Of a stretch of DNA of 64,000 nt, positions 6,266 to 37,474 are shown piece by piece. The notes under the pieces were generated by a model. The model was not told the origin of the DNA. It made no database searches and saw only the letters and a program-made list of their open reading frames with translations. The stretch comes from Arachnia rubra. GTDB taxonomy: Bacteria; Actinomycetota; Actinomycetes; Propionibacteriales; Propionibacteriaceae. The stretch spans positions 2,604,001-2,668,000 of the forward strand of contig NZ_AP024463.1 in assembly GCF_019973735.1 (NCBI RefSeq), written 5' to 3'. The stretch's first letter is position 1. The number at the start of each line of letters is the position of its first letter. The translations under genes and the position numbers were made by a program.

Positions 6266-6407
6266 GGGTTTCACTGACCCTCCCTCGGTGGAACCCCCCA
6301 CCTTGCCCTGAACACCTGAGTGTTTCTGTCGTCCTTTCGGCCGAGCCCCTCGCTGGGCTCCGGAACGCTTGGATACATTGACCGATAATCTATCCCCTGG
6401 AGGGCTC

Positions 6408-8651
6408 ATGAAATCAATATCCCGTCCATTGGTCGTTGTCATGGCGGGTTCGCTCGCCGCCTTGGCAGGGTGCGCCTCAGTCTCAGGGCCGCAGACGGCA
6501 GCACCGCCGATCAGCCCCGCGAACGTCCTGGTAGCCGGTCCCGGCGACGCCACCAGCCAGGCCCCCGAGAGTGACGGCACCGCCCCTCTGGTAGCCAACA
6601 ACATCTCGGAGGATGCAGAACAGGCCACAACCCAGCTGCAGAACCTCATCAACAAGGCCGTGCAGGAAGACACCGGAGTCAAGCTTGATCCATCGCGGAC
6701 CTACACGATCAACCATGAACTGGTCCTCACGAAGGGACTGAAGTTCTTTGACGGCGCAGGCGCCACCATCAAAGCTGCGATACCCAAAGGGGATAACCCC
6801 GGAAACGTATTCCGTTTCGAAAAAGACGCCAGCAACATGAAGCTCACCAATGTAGTGATTGACCTCAAGGAATCCACAGAAAAGGGGGCAGAAGTTCGCG
6901 GGGTCCTAGGCTCCGCTATATCGGATATCGAGATCAGTCATTTGACAATTCTCGGCCTCGGGTATAGAGGCATCGATGTAGTCGCACGAGACGGCGCAGT
7001 GAAAAATGTCAAGATCCTGAACAACAGGATAGTCGGGACTGTAAGTGATGAAGTCCCAGACAAGCAAGTCGCAATCGGTGTTACTTCTGGGATCAAGGGC
7101 GTAACCACTGATCCAAAAGATGAATATGCAGACAAAGAAGCTCCAGCATATGATCGATTTGTCGAGAAGGGCACTATCGCAGAAACAAATCCTGGAAGCA
7201 CAAACATCACCATCACTGGCAACCACATCACCGGAGCATACTATGGCATCGGGCTATCAGGAGTCAGCAACAGCTCCATAACCAACAACTACTCGACCGA
7301 GAACACCCGCAATCTGTCGATGCAGGACAACTCAAACAACAACACGGTGGAAGGGAACTACTTCAGCAATTCGTTCTCGGCATCCATCCACCTCGCCTAC
7401 GGTTCATCAGGCAACACCATCAAGGGAAACAAGATCACCACCAACCGCTCCCAGGGCGAAGGACTGGTGCAGGCCTACCAGAAAAGCCAGAACAACACCT
7501 TCGAGAACAATGTGATCGAGGTCAAAGAGCCAGCCCATCCCCACTGGATGTTCTACGTCGGCCCGGCCTCTGACAATAACGTCTTCCAGGGAAACATCCT
7601 CTCCGGGAAAGCCGACAGGGCCATTGTTGCGGTCGAGTCCATCTGGGACAAGGACTCCACAGTGTCAGGGAATGGCAACCAGCTCTCCAAGCATGCATAT
7701 GCCGGAAGAGACATCACCCATCCAAAAACTAAGGTATCGGTGAAGTACGCTGGCGGCCGAGGTAATCTCACTGGTGTCAAGTTCGTCGACAATGTCATCC
7801 TCCCGACGGGGACGCCATTCTATGTGGGCGCCGAAGTGTCCAAAGGTGTGGCGTCGAACCCTCTGAAGAAGGGCGAAACTAGAAAGCCGGAGGAAAAACT
7901 GATAGGCAATATCACGGGCCTGAATATCTCGGGCAATCACCTCGCCGGGACGGGGTACTCCGAATACCCCAGCGGACTGGCTGAACACAAGGGTTCTCTT
8001 CCTGGCGTTGAGAGCGCTTCCATCAACTATGAAAGCAAGGAGATCGGCCAGCACCACTCCACGGTCACCGATCAGCAGGGTGGCAATGGGAATGATCGGT
8101 TCGTCTTCGATGCATCCGGGGACAAGGCCACCGACAGCGGCGGCACCGACACCCTGTACACCGCCATCGACACCACCATCCCGGCTGGGGTGGAGAACCT
8201 TCAGATGCTGGGCAGTGGCCCGCTGAAGGTGACGGGCAATGACGAGGCCAACGCGATTACCGGCAACTCCGCCGACAACACCCTGTCTGGGGAGGGCGGC
8301 GACGACATCCTCGCCGGCGGAGAGGGAGCAAACACCCTCACCGGGGGCGCTGGGAACGATACGTTCGTACTGGATGGGAGGGCGGACGGCAAAGCCGACA
8401 CGCTCACCGACTTCGCCTCCGGCCAGGACAAGATCAAGCTGCCCGCGGCGACCTTCGGCTACCTGGGTGATGACGCCTTCACTACAGGCTCGGCCACCAC
8501 CACGACCCGCATCTACCAGCAGGACGGCGCTCTGTTCTTCGATGCCGATGGCTCGGGAGGCCTGTACCAGCCTGTGGCCATCGCGAAGCTACCCGCTGGC
8601 GTCCAGGTCCAGGCCGGTGACCTGATCATGGAGAAGGAACCAGCCAAGTAA
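6408..8651 (+). CDS. Beta-helix lipoprotein with C-terminal RTX/serralysin-like repeats
   Basis: A 747-residue predicted lipoprotein. Its signal peptide ends in the lipobox LAGC at about residue 23. Residues 80-530 are right-handed parallel beta-helix repeats of the NosD/pectate-lyase-like type, rich in N-x-I-x-G-N turns such as NITITGNHITG and NNTVEGNYF. Residues 570-680 carry RTX-type nonapeptides (GGNGNDRF, GEGGDDILAGG, GGAGNDTFVL), then a serralysin-like tail (LTDFASGQDKI, FFDADGSG). The order resembles alginate C5-epimerases (beta-helix plus R-module), so a surface polysaccharide epimerase, lyase or hydrolase is plausible but unproven. The start follows CTGGAGGG by 4 bases. A central A-rich coding stretch differs in composition from its neighbours. 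Confidence 0.82.
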   Translation: MKSISRPLVVVMAGSLAALAGCASVSGPQTAAPPISPANVLVAGPGDATSQAPESDGTAPLVANNISEDAEQATTQLQNLINKAVQEDTGVKLDPSRTYTINHELVLTKGLKFFDGAGATIKAAIPKGDNPGNVFRFEKDASNMKLTNVVIDLKESTEKGAEVRGVLGSAISDIEISHLTILGLGYRGIDVVARDGAVKNVKILNNRIVGTVSDEVPDKQVAIGVTSGIKGVTTDPKDEYADKEAPAYDRFVEKGTIAETNPGSTNITITGNHITGAYYGIGLSGVSNSSITNNYSTENTRNLSMQDNSNNNTVEGNYFSNSFSASIHLAYGSSGNTIKGNKITTNRSQGEGLVQAYQKSQNNTFENNVIEVKEPAHPHWMFYVGPASDNNVFQGNILSGKADRAIVAVESIWDKDSTVSGNGNQLSKHAYAGRDITHPKTKVSVKYAGGRGNLTGVKFVDNVILPTGTPFYVGAEVSKGVASNPLKKGETRKPEEKLIGNITGLNISGNHLAGTGYSEYPSGLAEHKGSLPGVESASINYESKEIGQHHSTVTDQQGGNGNDRFVFDASGDKATDSGGTDTLYTAIDTTIPAGVENLQMLGSGPLKVTGNDEANAITGNSADNTLSGEGGDDILAGGEGANTLTGGAGNDTFVLDGRADGKADTLTDFASGQDKIKLPAATFGYLGDDAFTTGSATTTTRIYQQDGALFFDADGSGGLYQPVAIAKLPAGVQVQAGDLIMEKEPAK

Positions 8652-12198: not shown

Positions 12199-12489
12199 TC
12201 AGCGGCGTTTGACGACCTGGGCTATCAATTCCCGGCTGCACCCGATCGCTTTCGCGAGCGCGCCATAGGACCAGCGTTTCTCATCCTCAGCGCGCAGCTG
12301 CCGGATCAGGCGGTCGCGCTCGGCACGCAGGTCGGCGGCGCGCCGCTCGGCCTCGGACGCCTGGTCGTGGAGTTCCCGGGCCCTGGCGGCCTTGAGGTCC
12401 GACACTCCCCCGGAACGACGAGTGGCGGCCCCGCCTGCGCCTGTCAGCGCGGCGTTGCCGCCACGTGTCCGGTCCCGCCTAGAAGCCAC
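12199..12489 (-). CDS. Small coiled-coil/HTH-like protein coupled to Ro60 gene
   Basis: A 96-residue basic protein starting at a GTG that overlaps the last 11 bases of the Ro60-like gene in another frame, so it is translationally coupled. Residues 1-25 are basic and disordered and 30-70 form an Arg/Glu-rich helix. The C-terminus (WSYGALAKAIGCSRELIAQVVKRR) reads as a short helix-turn-helix. Such a tail could bind DNA or RNA. I do not recognise a named family. The context suggests a role with the Ro60/Y-RNA particle or its regulation, which is inference. Confidence 0.7.
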   Translation of the reverse strand: MASRRDRTRGGNAALTGAGGAATRRSGGVSDLKAARARELHDQASEAERRAADLRAERDRLIRQLRAEDEKRWSYGALAKAIGCSRELIAQVVKRR

Positions 12490-14047
12490 GCGAAAACTCC
12501 GAGATCAGGTTCGGCACCGCATGGTCGAATCCGGCCACGTCCAGCATGCCCGCGTCGTCCGGGTTGGCGATGCTGAACCCCGTGGAGGTCATGGCCACCA
12601 CCACGAGCTTCGCCGGGATGCCGGTTGCCCGGCGGTACTCGGCCAGGGCCTGGTACGGGTGGATTCTCCCGCACCAGGTCTCGTTGTCGGTGTAGACCAC
12701 GAAGGTGTCCACCTCCAGTTTCTGCTTCCGGGCGTGGATCATTGGCTGTGCGCAGTCCGTGTTGCCGAACGGCAGACCGCTGATCCTGCCCAGCACGTCA
12801 TCGAGACGCTGCCGCGGTGACAGGTCGAGCGGCTGCAGCCGCCCGGTGAAACCGACGACCGCCGAGACGGGTTCTGTTGCCAGCTGCACCAGGGCCAGAC
12901 CCGCCGAGGCCTCGCGGGCGGTCACCGGCAAGCCCGAGATGTAGGAGGCCATCGAACCGGAGACGTCCAGCGCCAGCATGGTGCGCTTACCCGACGGGAC
13001 AACTGCGCCAAAAGTGGCGTAGAACGCATCATCCAGGGCGTCGACGACCCTGCGGCTGGGCTGCCATGAGCTCTTGCCGCGTACTGACTGCCCGGAGGCA
13101 TAGGTGCGTGCCGCCACGAGGACGTTCACCGGGTGGACGCGCGCCTTGCGGAGCCGGCCGGGATCGGTGAGCTGCGCGCATACCTGCTCGGTGTGGCCTC
13201 CCAGGTCGCTGAGAAGACCCAGCCCGGTGAGTCGTGGCAGCTGGCGCAGCAACGCCGTCTGCGGGATTCCCGCTTCCAGGAGCGCCTCCCAGACCTCGGG
13301 CTCCTTGAGAGCGGCGTCCGGCAGCATCTCCCAGGTCAGCCGGTGCTCACGAACCAGCCCAGCCCAGGTGCTGGCCTTCGTCGCCTCCTGCGCCTTCAGG
13401 AAGACGCGGATCAGCTCTGGTGTGTCATCATCCACCGACCTGCGCACGATCCAGTCGAACAGCGACCGCAGCTCCGGCACCGGCGTCACGGGGTGTGACA
13501 GCCGTAGCAGGTCCCGGTGCGTCCAGCCGTCGCGCTGACGGTACTTGACCACCTGATAGGCCAGGTCGCTGGCCTGCCGGTCCGTATACCAGCGCCCGAC
13601 GGCGCGGCGCAGCCCGCGTCCCCAACCGCGGAACTGCTGCACGTAGGCGGCGAAGGTGAACAGGTGGGTTCCAGTGCGCGCCACCGTGGGCAAAGCGGCC
13701 AGCGCAGCCGCGGAGGTCTCAGGCACGGAGGCTGCATAGGCCAGCGCGAACAGGGCCGGGTTCTGCCGGGGCGCGGCGCCGCGGGCAGAGACGTCGACGA
13801 TGGTGGCGACCAGCCCCTCGGGGTCCGATGCGGCCATACGCTGGAGGACGGCGACGTTCTGGATGGCCAGGTCCGCGGCGGAGGCATAGTAGGTGCCCCC
13901 ATCGACCCCGAGCAGCAGGAAGCGGCGCAGCCGCGCGGCATCGTCGAGTTCAAAGGTGTAACCCCCGGCTGAGTTCAGGACCTGCCGCTCGTCGGCGGGC
14001 GCGTTCTGCGGGGTGATCCGCAGTGCAATCCGGCGCAGTACGTCCAT
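12479..14047 (-). CDS. rsr: Ro60 ortholog (TROVE and vWA-like domain, Rsr)
   Basis: A 522-residue protein of the Ro60/TROVE family, a ring of HEAT-like helical repeats plus a vWA-like domain that binds Y RNAs and RNA 3' ends. N-terminal hallmarks include NSAGGYTFELDDAARLRRFLLLGVDGGTYY. HEAT-like helices cover residues 60-330, and the vWA MIDAS motif DVSGSM is at 361-366, with YTDNETWCG further on. The start is ATG 14047, with AAAGGAGG 8 bases upstream; longer ATG forms add only a disordered tail overlapping the Y RNA. In bacteria, Ro60 with Y RNA acts in rRNA maturation and decay with PNPase (family knowledge). The adjacent YrlA-like RNA strongly supports the call. No rtcB/rtcA neighbour is present. 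Confidence 0.93.
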   Translation of the reverse strand: MDVLRRIALRITPQNAPADERQVLNSAGGYTFELDDAARLRRFLLLGVDGGTYYASAADLAIQNVAVLQRMAASDPEGLVATIVDVSARGAAPRQNPALFALAYAASVPETSAAALAALPTVARTGTHLFTFAAYVQQFRGWGRGLRRAVGRWYTDRQASDLAYQVVKYRQRDGWTHRDLLRLSHPVTPVPELRSLFDWIVRRSVDDDTPELIRVFLKAQEATKASTWAGLVREHRLTWEMLPDAALKEPEVWEALLEAGIPQTALLRQLPRLTGLGLLSDLGGHTEQVCAQLTDPGRLRKARVHPVNVLVAARTYASGQSVRGKSSWQPSRRVVDALDDAFYATFGAVVPSGKRTMLALDVSGSMASYISGLPVTAREASAGLALVQLATEPVSAVVGFTGRLQPLDLSPRQRLDDVLGRISGLPFGNTDCAQPMIHARKQKLEVDTFVVYTDNETWCGRIHPYQALAEYRRATGIPAKLVVVAMTSTGFSIANPDDAGMLDVAGFDHAVPNLISEFSRGF

Positions 14048-14101
14048 GATGTCGCCTCCTTTCATTCGTCTTGGGCCTCTCGGAGCGGAAGGAGAGGAAG
14101 A

Positions 14102-14235
14102 GGCCCGGGCGGGCGTAGGTGTGGACACCGGAGTGCTGCTCTACCAATTGAGCTACGCCCGTTAGGACGACGGGACTCGAACCTGCAACCCGCCCATCCA
14201 TAGTGGTAACCGATGCCCTTCGGCCCACCCGGGCC
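14102..14235 (-). ncRNA. yrlA: YrlA-type Y RNA (tRNA-mimicking, Ro60 partner)
   Basis: A structured RNA about 134 nt long lies 54 bases upstream of the Ro60 start. Its ends pair (14223-14235 with 14102-14114, G+C rich). Next to the 5' strand is GGGCCGAAGGGC, close to the GGUCCGAAGG Ro-binding sequence of vertebrate Y RNAs. The interior mimics tRNA: a T-arm with loop TTCGAGT (14175-14181), then a 7-bp acceptor-like stem GGGCGTA/TACGCCC (14154-14160 with 14111-14117) enclosing a perfect D-arm (14138-14153) and a short third hairpin. T-arm precedes D-arm and there is no normal anticodon loop, so this is not a functional tRNA. Exact transcript ends are unknown. Confidence 0.85.
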
Positions 14236-14245
14236 ACGTCACCGC

Positions 14246-14381
14246 ATGAGGGCCACCCGGGCGTGTGAGTGCATCCGGCGTTCAACCGACGGGGGCGGCT
14301 TTTCAGACAACAGGCCTGGCAATGTGCCGCAGCCCGCACGGAAGTCGTTAACCGAGCGCGACCGGCCCGGGTGGTCCTCAT
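14246..14381. other. Long inverted-repeat element next to YrlA, possible second structured RNA
   Basis: Arms 14246-14262 and 14365-14381 pair over 17 positions with a single G-T type difference and enclose about 102 bases, a span nearly equal to the YrlA element beside it. The interior holds small hairpin potential (CGG...CCG around a 7-base loop near 14280) but no clear CCGAAGG motif or perfect T-arm. It lies between the candidate promoter and YrlA, so it could be the leader of the same transcript, a divergent second Y RNA, or an attenuator. Confidence 0.5.
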
Positions 14382-14414: not shown

Positions 14415-14452
14415 CTGTGTATTACAGTACACAGTCCTTCGCAGGGATGCAA
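14415..14452 (-). promoter_or_regulatory. Candidate promoter and palindrome for the Y RNA/Ro60 unit
   Basis: Read on the minus strand, TTGCAT (14447-14452) and TACTGT (14424-14429) are separated by 17 bases, a sigma-A-like pair. The -10 sits inside a perfect 7-bp inverted repeat CTGTGTA/TACACAG (14415-14434), a possible operator. It lies downstream of mazG and upstream of the Y RNA. Confidence 0.45.
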
Positions 14453-15620: not shown

Positions 15621-15828
15621 GGGTCTCCCTCCGACAAACAGCCTCGCTCCCGAAGCATAGCGTCCACCTCATCATGGGCCAGCACATCCCTGTGATAAAG
15701 GCCGATGAATTCTGAAAGGCGGTTTCACAAGGACTTTTTCCGCAGTTCTCGTTGCATCCCAGGAGTCAGCCCAGTAGCGTGAAGCGTGCTCATCACCGCT
15801 CACGGTATATCCGCAGAAGTGGGAGTCA

Positions 15829-15858
15829 CCTCGATTCGAGGCGTCTTATTTAAAAGAC
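15829..15858. promoter_or_regulatory. Tandem palindromes upstream of the GH16 gene
   Basis: Two adjacent palindromes sit in the 319-bp gap before the GH16 gene: CCTCGA-T-TCGAGG (15829-15841) and GTCTTATTTAAAAGAC (15843-15858, an imperfect palindrome with AT-rich centre). They are candidate operators or leader hairpins about 80-110 bases before the ATG. I see nothing else clear in this gap. Confidence 0.5.
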
Positions 15859-15938
15859 AACCACCTCGGATTCGCGCCTTCGACCACGACGTGGATACGC
15901 CGGGACCGGGACCGTCCTATCGAGGAGTAAATAAGCTG

Positions 15939-17477
15939 ATGAAGATTTATCGCCGTAAATTTCACCTGGCGACGGCAGCGGTGGCGTTCATAGGCGTCTT
16001 ATCGTTCCTACCCATCACACCTGCTAGCGCAGGAACGCACGAGGCTCCCTCATTCCAGTCCGCGCCGTCCGAGGTGGGAGACAACGGTGCGCCGTTCCAG
16101 CTCACCGCCGACCCGGGTCATTTCCAGAAGACAAGCCGGAGCGATGGCTCAGCAGCGGATTCCACGCTAACGGGTTACACCTTCCAGCTGGACGCGATCC
16201 CCTCCACCAGCGTCTACAACCGAGTGCAGGTCCGCAAGTCCGGGGAGAGCTATTACTCGGTCGTCGTGCGCTCCACTGAAGGGAAGGACTCCTACATCCA
16301 GCTGGAGAAGGTCACCAACGGCACCACTGAGGTACTCCAGGGCGCCAAGGTGAACGGCCTCAAGACCGGAACCAGCTACCGCCTCGAACTGGAGGCAGCC
16401 GGGAAGGACAAGGCGACCCTGTCCGCACGGGTCTATGAGGCCAGCTCCTCTGCTCCGCAGTGGCAGGTGACGGCAACCGACGAGAAGAGCCCCTTCGCAC
16501 CATCATCAGAGATCGGGGTGACCGCCTACGTGGGCAAGGGCAGTAGCACCCCCGTCACCACGACGGTCAGCAACCTGACCTCCGCGGACACCGCGGCGAG
16601 CACAGCACAGCAGACAAACCAGCAGAACGCAGCAGACGGCCACGTCGAGGGCTGGGGAGACCCCGTCTTCAATGACGATTTCAATGACTTCTCCCAGACG
16701 AAGAATAAGTGGAATATTGAAGATAATACCTATGTCGGCTACGACTGGGGGGAGATCAAGGCAGACAATGTTAACGTCCGTGATGGCAATCTGGTCATTC
16801 ACACCGAACGTCTAAAGGAGCCGATATCCCACAAAAAGGGGGATATAGACAAGGATGGCAATATCATCAAGCAACGCTGGTACTCCACAGGATCCCTCCA
16901 GACCAAGAATGGAAAATTCTCCCAGGAGTACGGCCGTTTCGAGCTGCGTGCAAAGCTGCCGACGATCAAAGGACACTCCCGCGGCATCTGGCCCGCATTC
17001 TGGATGCGCCCAGATAATGCTGACACCAACGAAGGTGAGATCGATATCCTCGAGGCCTACGGCACCCCAGCGGAAAGCCACGAAGACGACCATATCGACC
17101 TGCTGACCCAGTCCACGGCCACCTTGCACTACGTGCAGCCAGATAAGCACCCGGGCCAGAAACAGAAGCACCCCAATGAAAAGGCGATCACGCCGGCGGG
17201 GATCGATGTCAATGATGGCCAATTCCACACGTGGACCGTGGAGTGGACGCCGGAGAAGATCACCTTCTTCGTGGATGGCCAGAACTACTTAGATGTCGAC
17301 AAGTCGAACGACCCCCGCTGGAAGACTCTCTTCGGGTCGGGGGACAAATACAATCTCCGCCTGAACACCCAGGTCGGCTCGGGATACTGGGGCGAGCCCA
17401 ATGCCGAGCAGACGGCCGACAGGACCGAGTTCGTCATCGACTACGTGCGCGCGTGGAAGTACCAGGGACAAAGCTGA
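15939..17477 (+). CDS. Secreted GH16 endo-beta-glucanase-like enzyme
   Basis: A 512-residue secreted protein. Residues 1-31 form a Sec signal (MKIYRRKF then hydrophobic, cleavage near PASAG). Residues 45-215 look like a jelly-roll module (TGYTFQLDAIPS, NRVQVRKSGESYYSVVVR), possibly carbohydrate binding. Residues 235-510 are the GH16 catalytic domain with GRFELRAKLP, GIWPAFWMRP and the EIDILE active site at 367-372 (nucleophile and acid/base Glu). GH16 enzymes cleave beta-1,3 or beta-1,3/1,4 glucans, including dental-plaque or yeast glucans; the precise substrate is inferred. The ATG 15939 has GAGGAG 12 bases upstream; the longer open frame has no signal content. Two rare TTA codons occur, one in the signal peptide. 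Confidence 0.9.
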   Translation: MKIYRRKFHLATAAVAFIGVLSFLPITPASAGTHEAPSFQSAPSEVGDNGAPFQLTADPGHFQKTSRSDGSAADSTLTGYTFQLDAIPSTSVYNRVQVRKSGESYYSVVVRSTEGKDSYIQLEKVTNGTTEVLQGAKVNGLKTGTSYRLELEAAGKDKATLSARVYEASSSAPQWQVTATDEKSPFAPSSEIGVTAYVGKGSSTPVTTTVSNLTSADTAASTAQQTNQQNAADGHVEGWGDPVFNDDFNDFSQTKNKWNIEDNTYVGYDWGEIKADNVNVRDGNLVIHTERLKEPISHKKGDIDKDGNIIKQRWYSTGSLQTKNGKFSQEYGRFELRAKLPTIKGHSRGIWPAFWMRPDNADTNEGEIDILEAYGTPAESHEDDHIDLLTQSTATLHYVQPDKHPGQKQKHPNEKAITPAGIDVNDGQFHTWTVEWTPEKITFFVDGQNYLDVDKSNDPRWKTLFGSGDKYNLRLNTQVGSGYWGEPNAEQTADRTEFVIDYVRAWKYQGQS

Positions 17478-37391: not shown

Positions 37392-37395
37392 CGGC

Positions 37396-37474
37396 TCCCC
37401 GGGTAGGAGTCGAACCTACTTCGCTAATCCTGATTCAAAGTCAGGCGGGCCCTGCCGGAAGACCAACCGGGGAA
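37396..37474 (-). tRNA. tRNA-Gln (anticodon UUG), atypical 79-nt form
   Basis: The acceptor stem 37468-37474/37397-37403 (TCCCCGG/CCGGGGA) pairs fully. Anticodon stem CCTGA/TCAGG encloses loop CTTTGAA, giving anticodon UUG. The T-arm is GTAGG-TTCGACT-CCTAC. Discriminator G and acceptor stem starting with U fit Gln. The variable region has 9 bases and the D-arm one extra base, so the gene is longer than usual tRNA-Gln. CCA is not encoded. The place near glmU is shared with other Actinobacteria (recollection). Confidence 0.85.

What the first reader, a model, noticed from the sequence alone, without database searches (positions are those of the whole stretch)
12479..14235. Ro60 (Rsr) with an upstream tRNA-mimicking YrlA-type Y RNA
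Seen: a 522-residue TROVE/vWA protein, with a structured element 54 bp upstream containing a GGGCCGAAGGGC motif next to pairing ends, a canonical T-arm, then a D-arm inside a 7-bp acceptor-like stem. The T-arm comes before the D-arm, so this is no ordinary tRNA. Known: bacterial Ro60 orthologs bind Y RNAs, YrlA RNAs mimic tRNA, and vertebrate Y RNAs carry GGUCCGAAGG at the Ro site. Inference: a complete Ro60-Y RNA particle in a Propionibacteriaceae-like organism, which standard annotation would likely miss.
Basis: partly seen in the sequence, partly recalled or inferred. Interest (0 to 1): 0.82.

Follow-up and report, generated by a model that had tools for sequence, protein, structure and literature searches.

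The report
Two Y RNAs before a Ro60 gene
A bacterium related to Arachnia propionica carries a gene for a bacterial version of the human lupus protein Ro60, preceded by two small RNAs that look built to bind it; a short motif in one of them matches a motif of animal Y RNAs that is linked to DNA copying.

Summary
ORF 12479-14047(-) is a full Ro60/Rsr. Just upstream lies a YrlA-type Y RNA (14102-14235): Ro stem with CGAA bulge, 9-bp upper stem, UUACC, T-arm, acceptor-like stem, D-arm. It scores 35.9 bits with Rfam YrlA, below the cut-off of 69. Of 84 rsr loci, 68 carry 1-4 units (51 two or more) with one frame and varying middles. Distal stem pairs covary (87% paired; 58% with strands re-dealt). 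A finder blind to the loop gave 122 frames (6 in shuffled DNA); 90 have UUA(U/C)C right after the upper stem. Animal Y/stem-bulge RNAs have that pentamer in the same place, needed for DNA replication in vitro. Independently, Rfam's nematode stem-bulge model hits 13 of 32 rsr loci scanned: 22 hits, all in the 700 nt before rsr, two above cut-off. The window's own RNAs do not hit it. The object is of a known kind; its family suggests bacterial and animal Y RNAs share more than the Ro site. Transcription and binding are untested.

The parts
12479..14047 (-). rsr: Ro60/Rsr protein, 522 aa (TROVE + vWA)
   Evidence: Pfam, PDB phmmer; His185 aligns with human His187 and is invariant in the 10-row alignment A1, the window included
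14055..14062 (-). Shine-Dalgarno AAAGGAGG of rsr
   Evidence: sequence
14102..14235 (-). Y RNA 2 (YrlA type), 134 nt: 13-bp lower Ro stem, 9-bp upper stem, tRNA-like middle
   Evidence: same position and paired stems in relatives
14219..14222 (-). 5' side of the Ro internal loop, CGAA (opposite ACACCTAC at 14115-14122)
14205..14209 (-). loop pentamer UUACC of Y RNA 2, directly after the upper stem
14170..14186 (-). T-arm GCAGGTTCGAGTCCCGT
14138..14153 (-). D-arm GCTCAATTGGTAGAGC, 3' of the T-arm
14253..14374 (-).
   Evidence: pairing score 43 against 930 shuffled-3' controls of mean 26.5, 99th percentile 38, max 46; a unit in the same first position in relatives; coordinates
14415..14434 (.). 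20-bp palindrome CTGTGTACTGTAATACACAG, candidate operator
   Evidence: GTGTA-N6-TACAC upstream of the array in the window and in the 8 rsr-bearing genus relatives (loci outside the genus not checked); GTGTACTGTNNTACAC has one exact match in the genome, here
14424..14452 (-). candidate promoter TTGCAT-N17-TACTGT, -10 inside the palindrome
   Evidence: read from sequence; TTG...-N17-TACTGT also read by eye in L010, L013, L037, L020, L022, L026; no transcript data

Best explanation
This is an rsr operon whose leader encodes two Ro-binding Y RNAs. A sigma-70-like promoter under a palindromic operator is inferred to make one transcript, Y1-Y2-rsr; the Y RNAs would be trimmed from it and held by Rsr through the bulged lower stem. 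The constant frame (Ro stem, upper stem, UUAYC) would dock the RNA on Rsr and the varying middle would be the effector end. In Y2 that is a tRNA-elbow mimic, which by analogy with the D. radiodurans Rsr-Y RNA-PNPase particle would tether PNPase or gate substrate entry; in Y1 it is a different module, so Y1 could act as an alternative gate or occupant. Shown here: the protein, both frames, and, over the family, their conservation, covariation and layout before rsr. Inferred: transcription, processing, binding, the PNPase link and the effect of Y1.
For: Rsr identity and the conserved Y-contact histidine. UUA-blind frame finder over 84 loci: 122 frames at score >=40 in 69 loci, 6 in one shuffle of each leader; at >=34 it is 209 against 64. 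Lower-stem covariation: 105 distinct units, pairs 5-10 paired in 87.3% of cells against 57.6% (max 62.7% of 500 trials) when 3' strands are re-dealt. 152 units in 68 of 84 loci; by simple patterns T+D 69, T only 41, D only 4, neither 38. Similar frames before rsr in other phyla and, by eye, in phages. In 39 genomes of the genus the 5' pattern GGGCCG...CGGTTAYC has 42 matches, 22 of them in the leaders of the 9 rsr-bearing genomes. Palindrome shared by the window and its 8 rsr-bearing genus relatives. PNPase and RtcB genes exist elsewhere in the genome. [quoted passage not shown] smegmatis.
Against: No expression or binding data. The YrlA model stays below its cut-off and tandem tRNAs nearly match it. 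The folding z-score is modest and at low thresholds the frame finder is noisy (288 against 152 at score >=30). The other 20 of the 42 pattern matches in the genus lie elsewhere, some in genomes without rsr; the reversed control pattern has 10. Only 8 of 35 other genomes of the genus have rsr. The palindrome's uniqueness is weak evidence: with two mismatches allowed the pattern has 2 matches and its reversed control 7. Y1 has a mismatch in the upper stem and lacks the T-arm that the first unit has in L010, L013 and L037, so it may be decaying.
Confidence: 0.85

Rival explanations
1. The structures are a cis-acting leader of the rsr mRNA (autoregulation by Rsr binding its own 5' UTR) rather than free small RNAs.
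For: They lie in line with rsr, the last ending 54 nt before the start codon; units lie upstream of rsr in 68 of 84 loci.
Against: One to four units with unrelated middles, including tRNA mimics, exceed what a leader switch needs; the ribosome-binding site is outside the stems; Yrl RNAs elsewhere are described as Rsr-bound RNAs (PMC4726728, passages). Both roles could coexist.
Confidence: 0.12
2. A decayed tandem tRNA pair: the T-arm of one tRNA followed by the D-arm of the next.
For: The YrlA model scores an intact tandem tRNA-Lys pair in this genome at 32.6 bits. In several myxobacterial and deltaproteobacterial loci rsr sits inside tRNA arrays.
Against: Outer stems, bulge and UUAYC are conserved and covary in a set in which 38 of 152 units carry neither arm. 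Tandem tRNAs may still be the evolutionary source of the YrlA module.
Confidence: 0.03
3. The UUAYC and upper-stem likeness to animal Y/stem-bulge RNAs is convergence on a shared contact or fold, not common descent.
For: The motif is short. The RF02553 consensus reads CUAc at this place and the Bosea YrlA lacks UUAYC. No RF00019 (vertebrate Y RNA) match appears, and 19 of 32 loci gave no RF01656 hit. In C. elegans, stem-bulge RNAs were not found with the Ro60 homologue (PMC4726728, passage), so the motif need not be a Ro60 contact there.
Against: Order and spacing of lower stem with GGYCCGR, ~9-bp upper stem and UUAYC agree, and in several non-actinobacterial units ACUUG before the 3' strand as well, enough for the nematode model RF01656 to hit at 42.0 and 41.4 bits, over its cut-off of 38.
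Confidence: 0.4

Closest known systems
YrlA bacterial Y RNA (Rfam RF02553; described in Salmonella and M. smegmatis)
   Same: Rsr-linked; 5'/3' stem with a Ro-site loop; T-arm, acceptor-like stem and D-arm in that order
   Different: Scores 35.9 of the 69 needed; UUACC after the upper stem where the RF02553 consensus reads CUAc; a second unit of another class lies in front of it
Salmonella rsr-yrlBA-rtcBA operon (PMC7790460, passages read)
   Same: Two Y RNA genes in one operon with rsr
   Different: Here the Y RNAs precede rsr and the only RtcB gene is far away in the genome; a palindrome overlaps the candidate promoter. RtcR and RtcA were not searched for
Deinococcus radiodurans Rsr, Y RNA and the RYPER particle (PMC4726728, PMC8394870, passages read)
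   Same: Rsr ortholog; Y RNA as tether/gate to PNPase is the proposed model
   Different: No binding to PNPase shown here; the D. radiodurans Y RNA sequence was not compared
Nematode stem-bulge RNAs and vertebrate Y RNAs (PMC4450293, passages read)
   Same: [quoted passage not shown] nematode model RF01656 hits relatives of this RNA
   Different: The window's own two RNAs give no RF01656 match at E<=10; tRNA-like middles; no DNA-replication role known

Membership tests
Ro60/Rsr protein | TROVE ring plus Ro60-type vWA domain | tested here: met
   PF05731 152.1 bits, PF25045 211.3 bits
Ro60/Rsr protein | Y RNA-contact histidine (human His187, named in PMC4030889, passage) | tested here: met
   aligns with His185, invariant in the 10 rows of A1
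YrlA Y RNA | T-arm 5' of D-arm with an acceptor-like stem between | tested here: met
YrlA Y RNA | long 5'/3' stem with the Ro-site internal loop | tested here: met
YrlA Y RNA | score over the RF02553 gathering cut-off (formal Rfam membership) | tested here: not met
   35.9 of 69; no YrlA match reaches 69 (best 52.5). It is therefore called YrlA-type, not an RF02553 member
YrlA Y RNA | binds Rsr; modified by tRNA enzymes | not testable with these tools
   needs experiment
[quoted passage not shown]
   met by Y2; Y1 has UUAAC and an upper-stem mismatch, so only in part
Animal Y / stem-bulge RNA | match to RF01656 or RF00019 | tested here: not met
   No such match for the window at E<=10. Relatives: 22 RF01656 hits in 13 of 32 loci scanned, two over the cut-off; none to RF00019 in those lists
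Animal Y / stem-bulge RNA | role in DNA replication | not testable with these tools
   needs experiment

The most novel reading that the evidence does not exclude
Bacterial and animal Y RNAs are one family by descent, not just RNAs that share a Ro60 docking site: the upper stem and the UUA(U/C)C loop motif, thought to serve DNA replication in animals, are ancient and were already part of a Ro60-linked RNA in bacteria. Bacteria then used this constant frame as a cassette holder: 1-4 units per rsr with varying middles (full tRNA elbow, T-arm often with UGG, or neither), i.e. several exchangeable effectors for one Ro ring.
Probability: 0.5. Interest if true: 0.82.

Novelty: new variant of a known kind. 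Interest (0 to 1): 0.62.

Why it matters
The UUA(U/C)C pentamer was described as a feature of animal Y/stem-bulge RNAs whose mutation severely compromises their activity in a DNA-replication assay (PMC4450293, passages), and a review calls bacterial Y RNAs not homologous with the vertebrate ones (PMC4726728, passages). It follows the upper stem in 90 of 122 loop-blind frames of rsr leaders, mostly actinobacterial, and occurs in other phyla and, by eye, in phages and plasmids. If the likeness is by descent, the motif did not arise for the animal role, and what it does can be asked in bacteria with one rsr and few Y RNAs. The genus includes Arachnia propionica (formerly Propionibacterium propionicum, recalled), which PMC11944652 (passages) discusses as a Ro60-bearing commensal in lupus; its Y RNAs would travel with the cross-reactive protein.

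Tried and rejected
Chance: rejected by shuffles and covariation. Tandem or decayed tRNAs: rejected as the present identity, kept as a possible origin. A hairpin just downstream of Y2 (14073-14106) that competes with its 3' strand looked like a switch; by eye I did not find it in the relatives' leaders, so I dropped it. A longer GTG start (14128) for rsr was set aside: it overlaps Y2, and the ATG has a good ribosome-binding site. No structure prediction was run. My D-arm pattern was first too strict (61 T+D of 153) and was relaxed (69 T+D of 152, after dropping one chance hit, L062 -1043); both patterns are crude. Dropped rows: 6 of 90 rsr loci as duplicates (same contig); 13 of 153 units without a 3' anchor in the covariation count, identical stems merged (140 to 105). 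Of the 84 loci, 16 have no unit by the main pattern: L050 has only 113 nt upstream; 8 (L087, L088, L093-L098) have frames by a wider pattern; L068 has a variant loop; L090 only a distant one at -1681; L055, L081, L084, L091, L092 none that I found. The pentamer tally (145 of 153 UUAYC) is biased, because the pattern contains most of the motif; the loop-blind figure is 90 of 122. Phage and plasmid loci were judged by pattern and eye, not scored: L131, L132, L133, L135, L137 and L140 show the motif, L134 a variant, L136 (Bosea) none in a Y frame.

Full report
What is there. The ORF at 12479-14047(-) encodes a 522-aa Ro60/Rsr (Pfam TROVE 152.1 bits and vWA_Ro60 211.3 bits; D. radiodurans Rsr 2nvo E 3.4e-119, human RO60 E 6.9e-112). 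Human His187, which PMC4030889 (passages) names as essential for Y RNA contact, aligns with His185, invariant in the 10-row alignment that includes the window. Fifty-four nt upstream ends a 134-nt element (14102-14235): lower stem GGCCCGGGTGGGC/GCCCGCCCGGGCC, internal loop CGAA opposite ACACCTAC, upper stem GGGCATCGG/CCGGTGTCC (9 bp), UUACC, T-arm, a short acceptor-like stem, D-arm. Rfam YrlA matches it at 35.9 bits, under the gathering score of 69; nothing is reported there at gathering nor by ARAGORN. That score alone is not proof: in the same genome a tandem tRNA-Lys pair scores 32.6 bits, and folding energy is only modestly better than shuffles (z -2.04, 7 of 200 as good).

A second unit with the same frame lies at 14253-14374: lower stem CCACCCGGGC/GCCCGGGTGG, upper stem GCGCUCGG/CCGGAUGC with one C.A mismatch, UUAAC, but no canonical T- or D-arm in its 68-nt middle. 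In L010, L013 and L037 the first unit has a T-arm. Upstream lie a palindrome CTGTGTACTGTAATACACAG and TTGCAT-N17-TACTGT, the -10 inside it. GTGTA-N6-TACAC is found upstream of the array in the window and in the 8 rsr-bearing relatives of the genus; loci outside the genus were not checked. GTGTACTGTNNTACAC has one exact match in the genome, here, and one other with two mismatches, against 7 for the reversed control at two mismatches.

Relatives. rsr is present in 8 of 35 other genomes of the genus and 1 of 24 of the order. In 39 genomes of the genus the pattern GGGCCG...CGGTTAYC has 42 matches; 22 lie in the leaders of the 9 rsr-bearing genomes, the other 20 elsewhere, against 10 for the reversed control. 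A scan of named genomes found 361 relatives of which the best 80 were kept; with the 10 and 6 duplicates removed, 84 rsr loci were examined. 152 units lie in 68 of 84 loci: 17 loci with one, 27 with two, 15 with three, 9 with four; by simple patterns T+D 69, T-arm only 41, D only 4, neither 38. In the 51 loci with several units the one farthest from rsr is T+D in 38. Of the T-only class 19 of 41 begin UGG after the pentamer, which could offer D-loop-like Gs to the T-loop, a minimal tRNA elbow; this is inference. The 16 loci without a unit by this pattern are listed under Tried and rejected.

Is the structure real? Scored without reference to the loop motif, 122 frames at score >=40 occur in 69 loci against 6 in one shuffle of each leader; lower thresholds are noisier (209 against 64 at >=34, 288 against 152 at >=30). 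With the 3' strand located by a motif instead of by pairing, lower-stem pairs 5-10, which lie outside that motif, are paired in 87.3% of cells over 105 distinct units; dealing the 3' strands anew gives 57.6% on average, 62.7% at most in 500 trials, and pairs 7-10 use all four Watson-Crick types. Relatedness inflates such numbers, but the gap is large.

The pentamer. In 90 of the 122 loop-blind frames UUA(U/C)C follows the upper stem directly; TTAYC occurs 207 times in 90,377 positions of the same leaders, these 90 included. In 17 loci, mostly of other phyla (4 of them, L082, L083, L086, L089, also in the main set), 23 of 31 motif sites pair at score >=34, against 1 of 31 with the 3' side shuffled; 12 of the 17 loci have at least one. 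By pattern and eye, unscored, it is also seen in phage loci L131, L132, L133, L135, the cyanobacterial plasmid L137 and the Rhizobium plasmid L140; L134 has a variant and the Bosea YrlA (L136) lacks it. The RF02553 consensus reads CUAc there. So it is widespread, not universal.

The link to animals. PMC4450293 (passages) reports that C. [quoted passage not shown] Rfam RF01656 carries the names ceN72-3 and ceN74-2; the paper lists CeN72 and CeN74-2 as stem-bulge RNAs. It matched Y RNAs of bacteria and one phage independently of my motif: 22 hits at E<=1 in 13 of 32 loci scanned, every one on the rsr strand within 700 nt upstream of rsr. The 32 loci were chosen, not random: non-actinobacterial ones, ones with short middles, and phages or plasmids with a few others. 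Two hits exceed the cut-off of 38 (L056 Nocardia carnea 42.0 bits, L083 Ca. Sungbacteria 41.4 bits); three more come within a bit (L058 37.7, L097 37.5, L082 37.4). Smaller scans of two loci gave lower E-values for the same hits and two weaker further ones, also upstream (L097 1747-1807 at 754 nt before rsr, L087 1901-2009). Against this: the window's own RNAs do not reach RF01656 at E<=10, 19 of the 32 loci have no hit, no RF00019 match appears in any list, and in C. elegans the stem-bulge RNAs were not found with the Ro60 homologue (PMC4726728, passage). [quoted passage not shown] PMC4030889 notes the shared bulged C. Full-text searches for UUAUC with Y RNA or sbRNA, and for YrlA, YrlB, Rsr or bacterial Y RNA, listed no paper that I recognised as reporting the pentamer in bacteria, but I saw only listings and passages, and Chen 2014 and Sim and Wolin 2018 are not held.

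How it most likely works. One operator-controlled transcript is inferred to yield Y1, Y2 and rsr mRNA. Rsr holds each Y RNA by the bulged stem. The Y2 middle mimics a tRNA elbow and, by analogy with D. radiodurans where Y RNA tethers Rsr to PNPase (PMC4726728, PMC8394870, PMC7790460, passages), may recruit PNPase; PNPase and RtcB genes lie elsewhere in this genome. Y1, without arms, may serve as a gate or hold another partner. An array of one frame with varying middles fits several effectors for one ring. The expression, processing, binding and effector steps are untested.

Origin. The permuted T-then-D order equals the junction of two tandem tRNAs, an intact tandem pair nearly passes for YrlA, and in 9 of 10 loci given to ARAGORN, most of them picked because one search had shown tRNAs there, rsr sits among 7-24 same-strand tRNA genes. 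YrlA may have arisen from such a junction. This is a hypothesis.

Verdict. The particle is of a known kind with new features. The interest lies in the conserved frame and its animal counterpart, which make a question about Y RNA function testable in bacteria.

Noticed in passing
L081, L084, L088, L091-L094, L096, L098: In these Myxococcota/Deltaproteobacteria loci rsr is nested among 7-24 same-strand tRNA genes per 4.5-6.7 kb; L081, L084, L088 and L093 share the order Phe-Lys-Gly-Thr-[rsr]-Asn-Glu (an extra Gly in L081), L091 nearly so.
   Followed up: partly
L011 1312-1385; L014 1318-1388; L011 820-900: ARAGORN calls tRNA-Asp(gtc) and tRNA-Glu(ctc) over the Y unit next to rsr, and tRNA-Val(gac) just before the first unit; at least the first two look like false tRNA genes.
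   Followed up: partly
L086: A contig labelled Ca. Bathyarchaeota encodes an Rsr 50% identical with several UUACC frames upstream; an archaeal Ro particle or a mis-binned contig.
   Followed up: no
phage collection; L131-L135: 342 of 50,697 phage records match Rsr, mostly Mycobacterium (197) and Streptomyces (115) phages; four of five fetched show the UUAYC pattern upstream, with no Y RNA among the listed features.
   Followed up: partly
41 T-only units; e.g. L056 -233: A recurrent class keeps the T-arm and often UGG after UUAYC but has no D-stem: a possible minimal tRNA-elbow mimic.
   Followed up: partly
window 37393-37473: tRNA-Gln(ttg) call is weak (Rfam 29.1 bits, cut-off 29) and may be degenerate.
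   Followed up: no
window 6369-8651 and 15786-17477: By reading their translations, with motifs recalled: a secreted protein with GGxGND-type repeats and a glucanase-like secreted enzyme; not searched.
   Followed up: no
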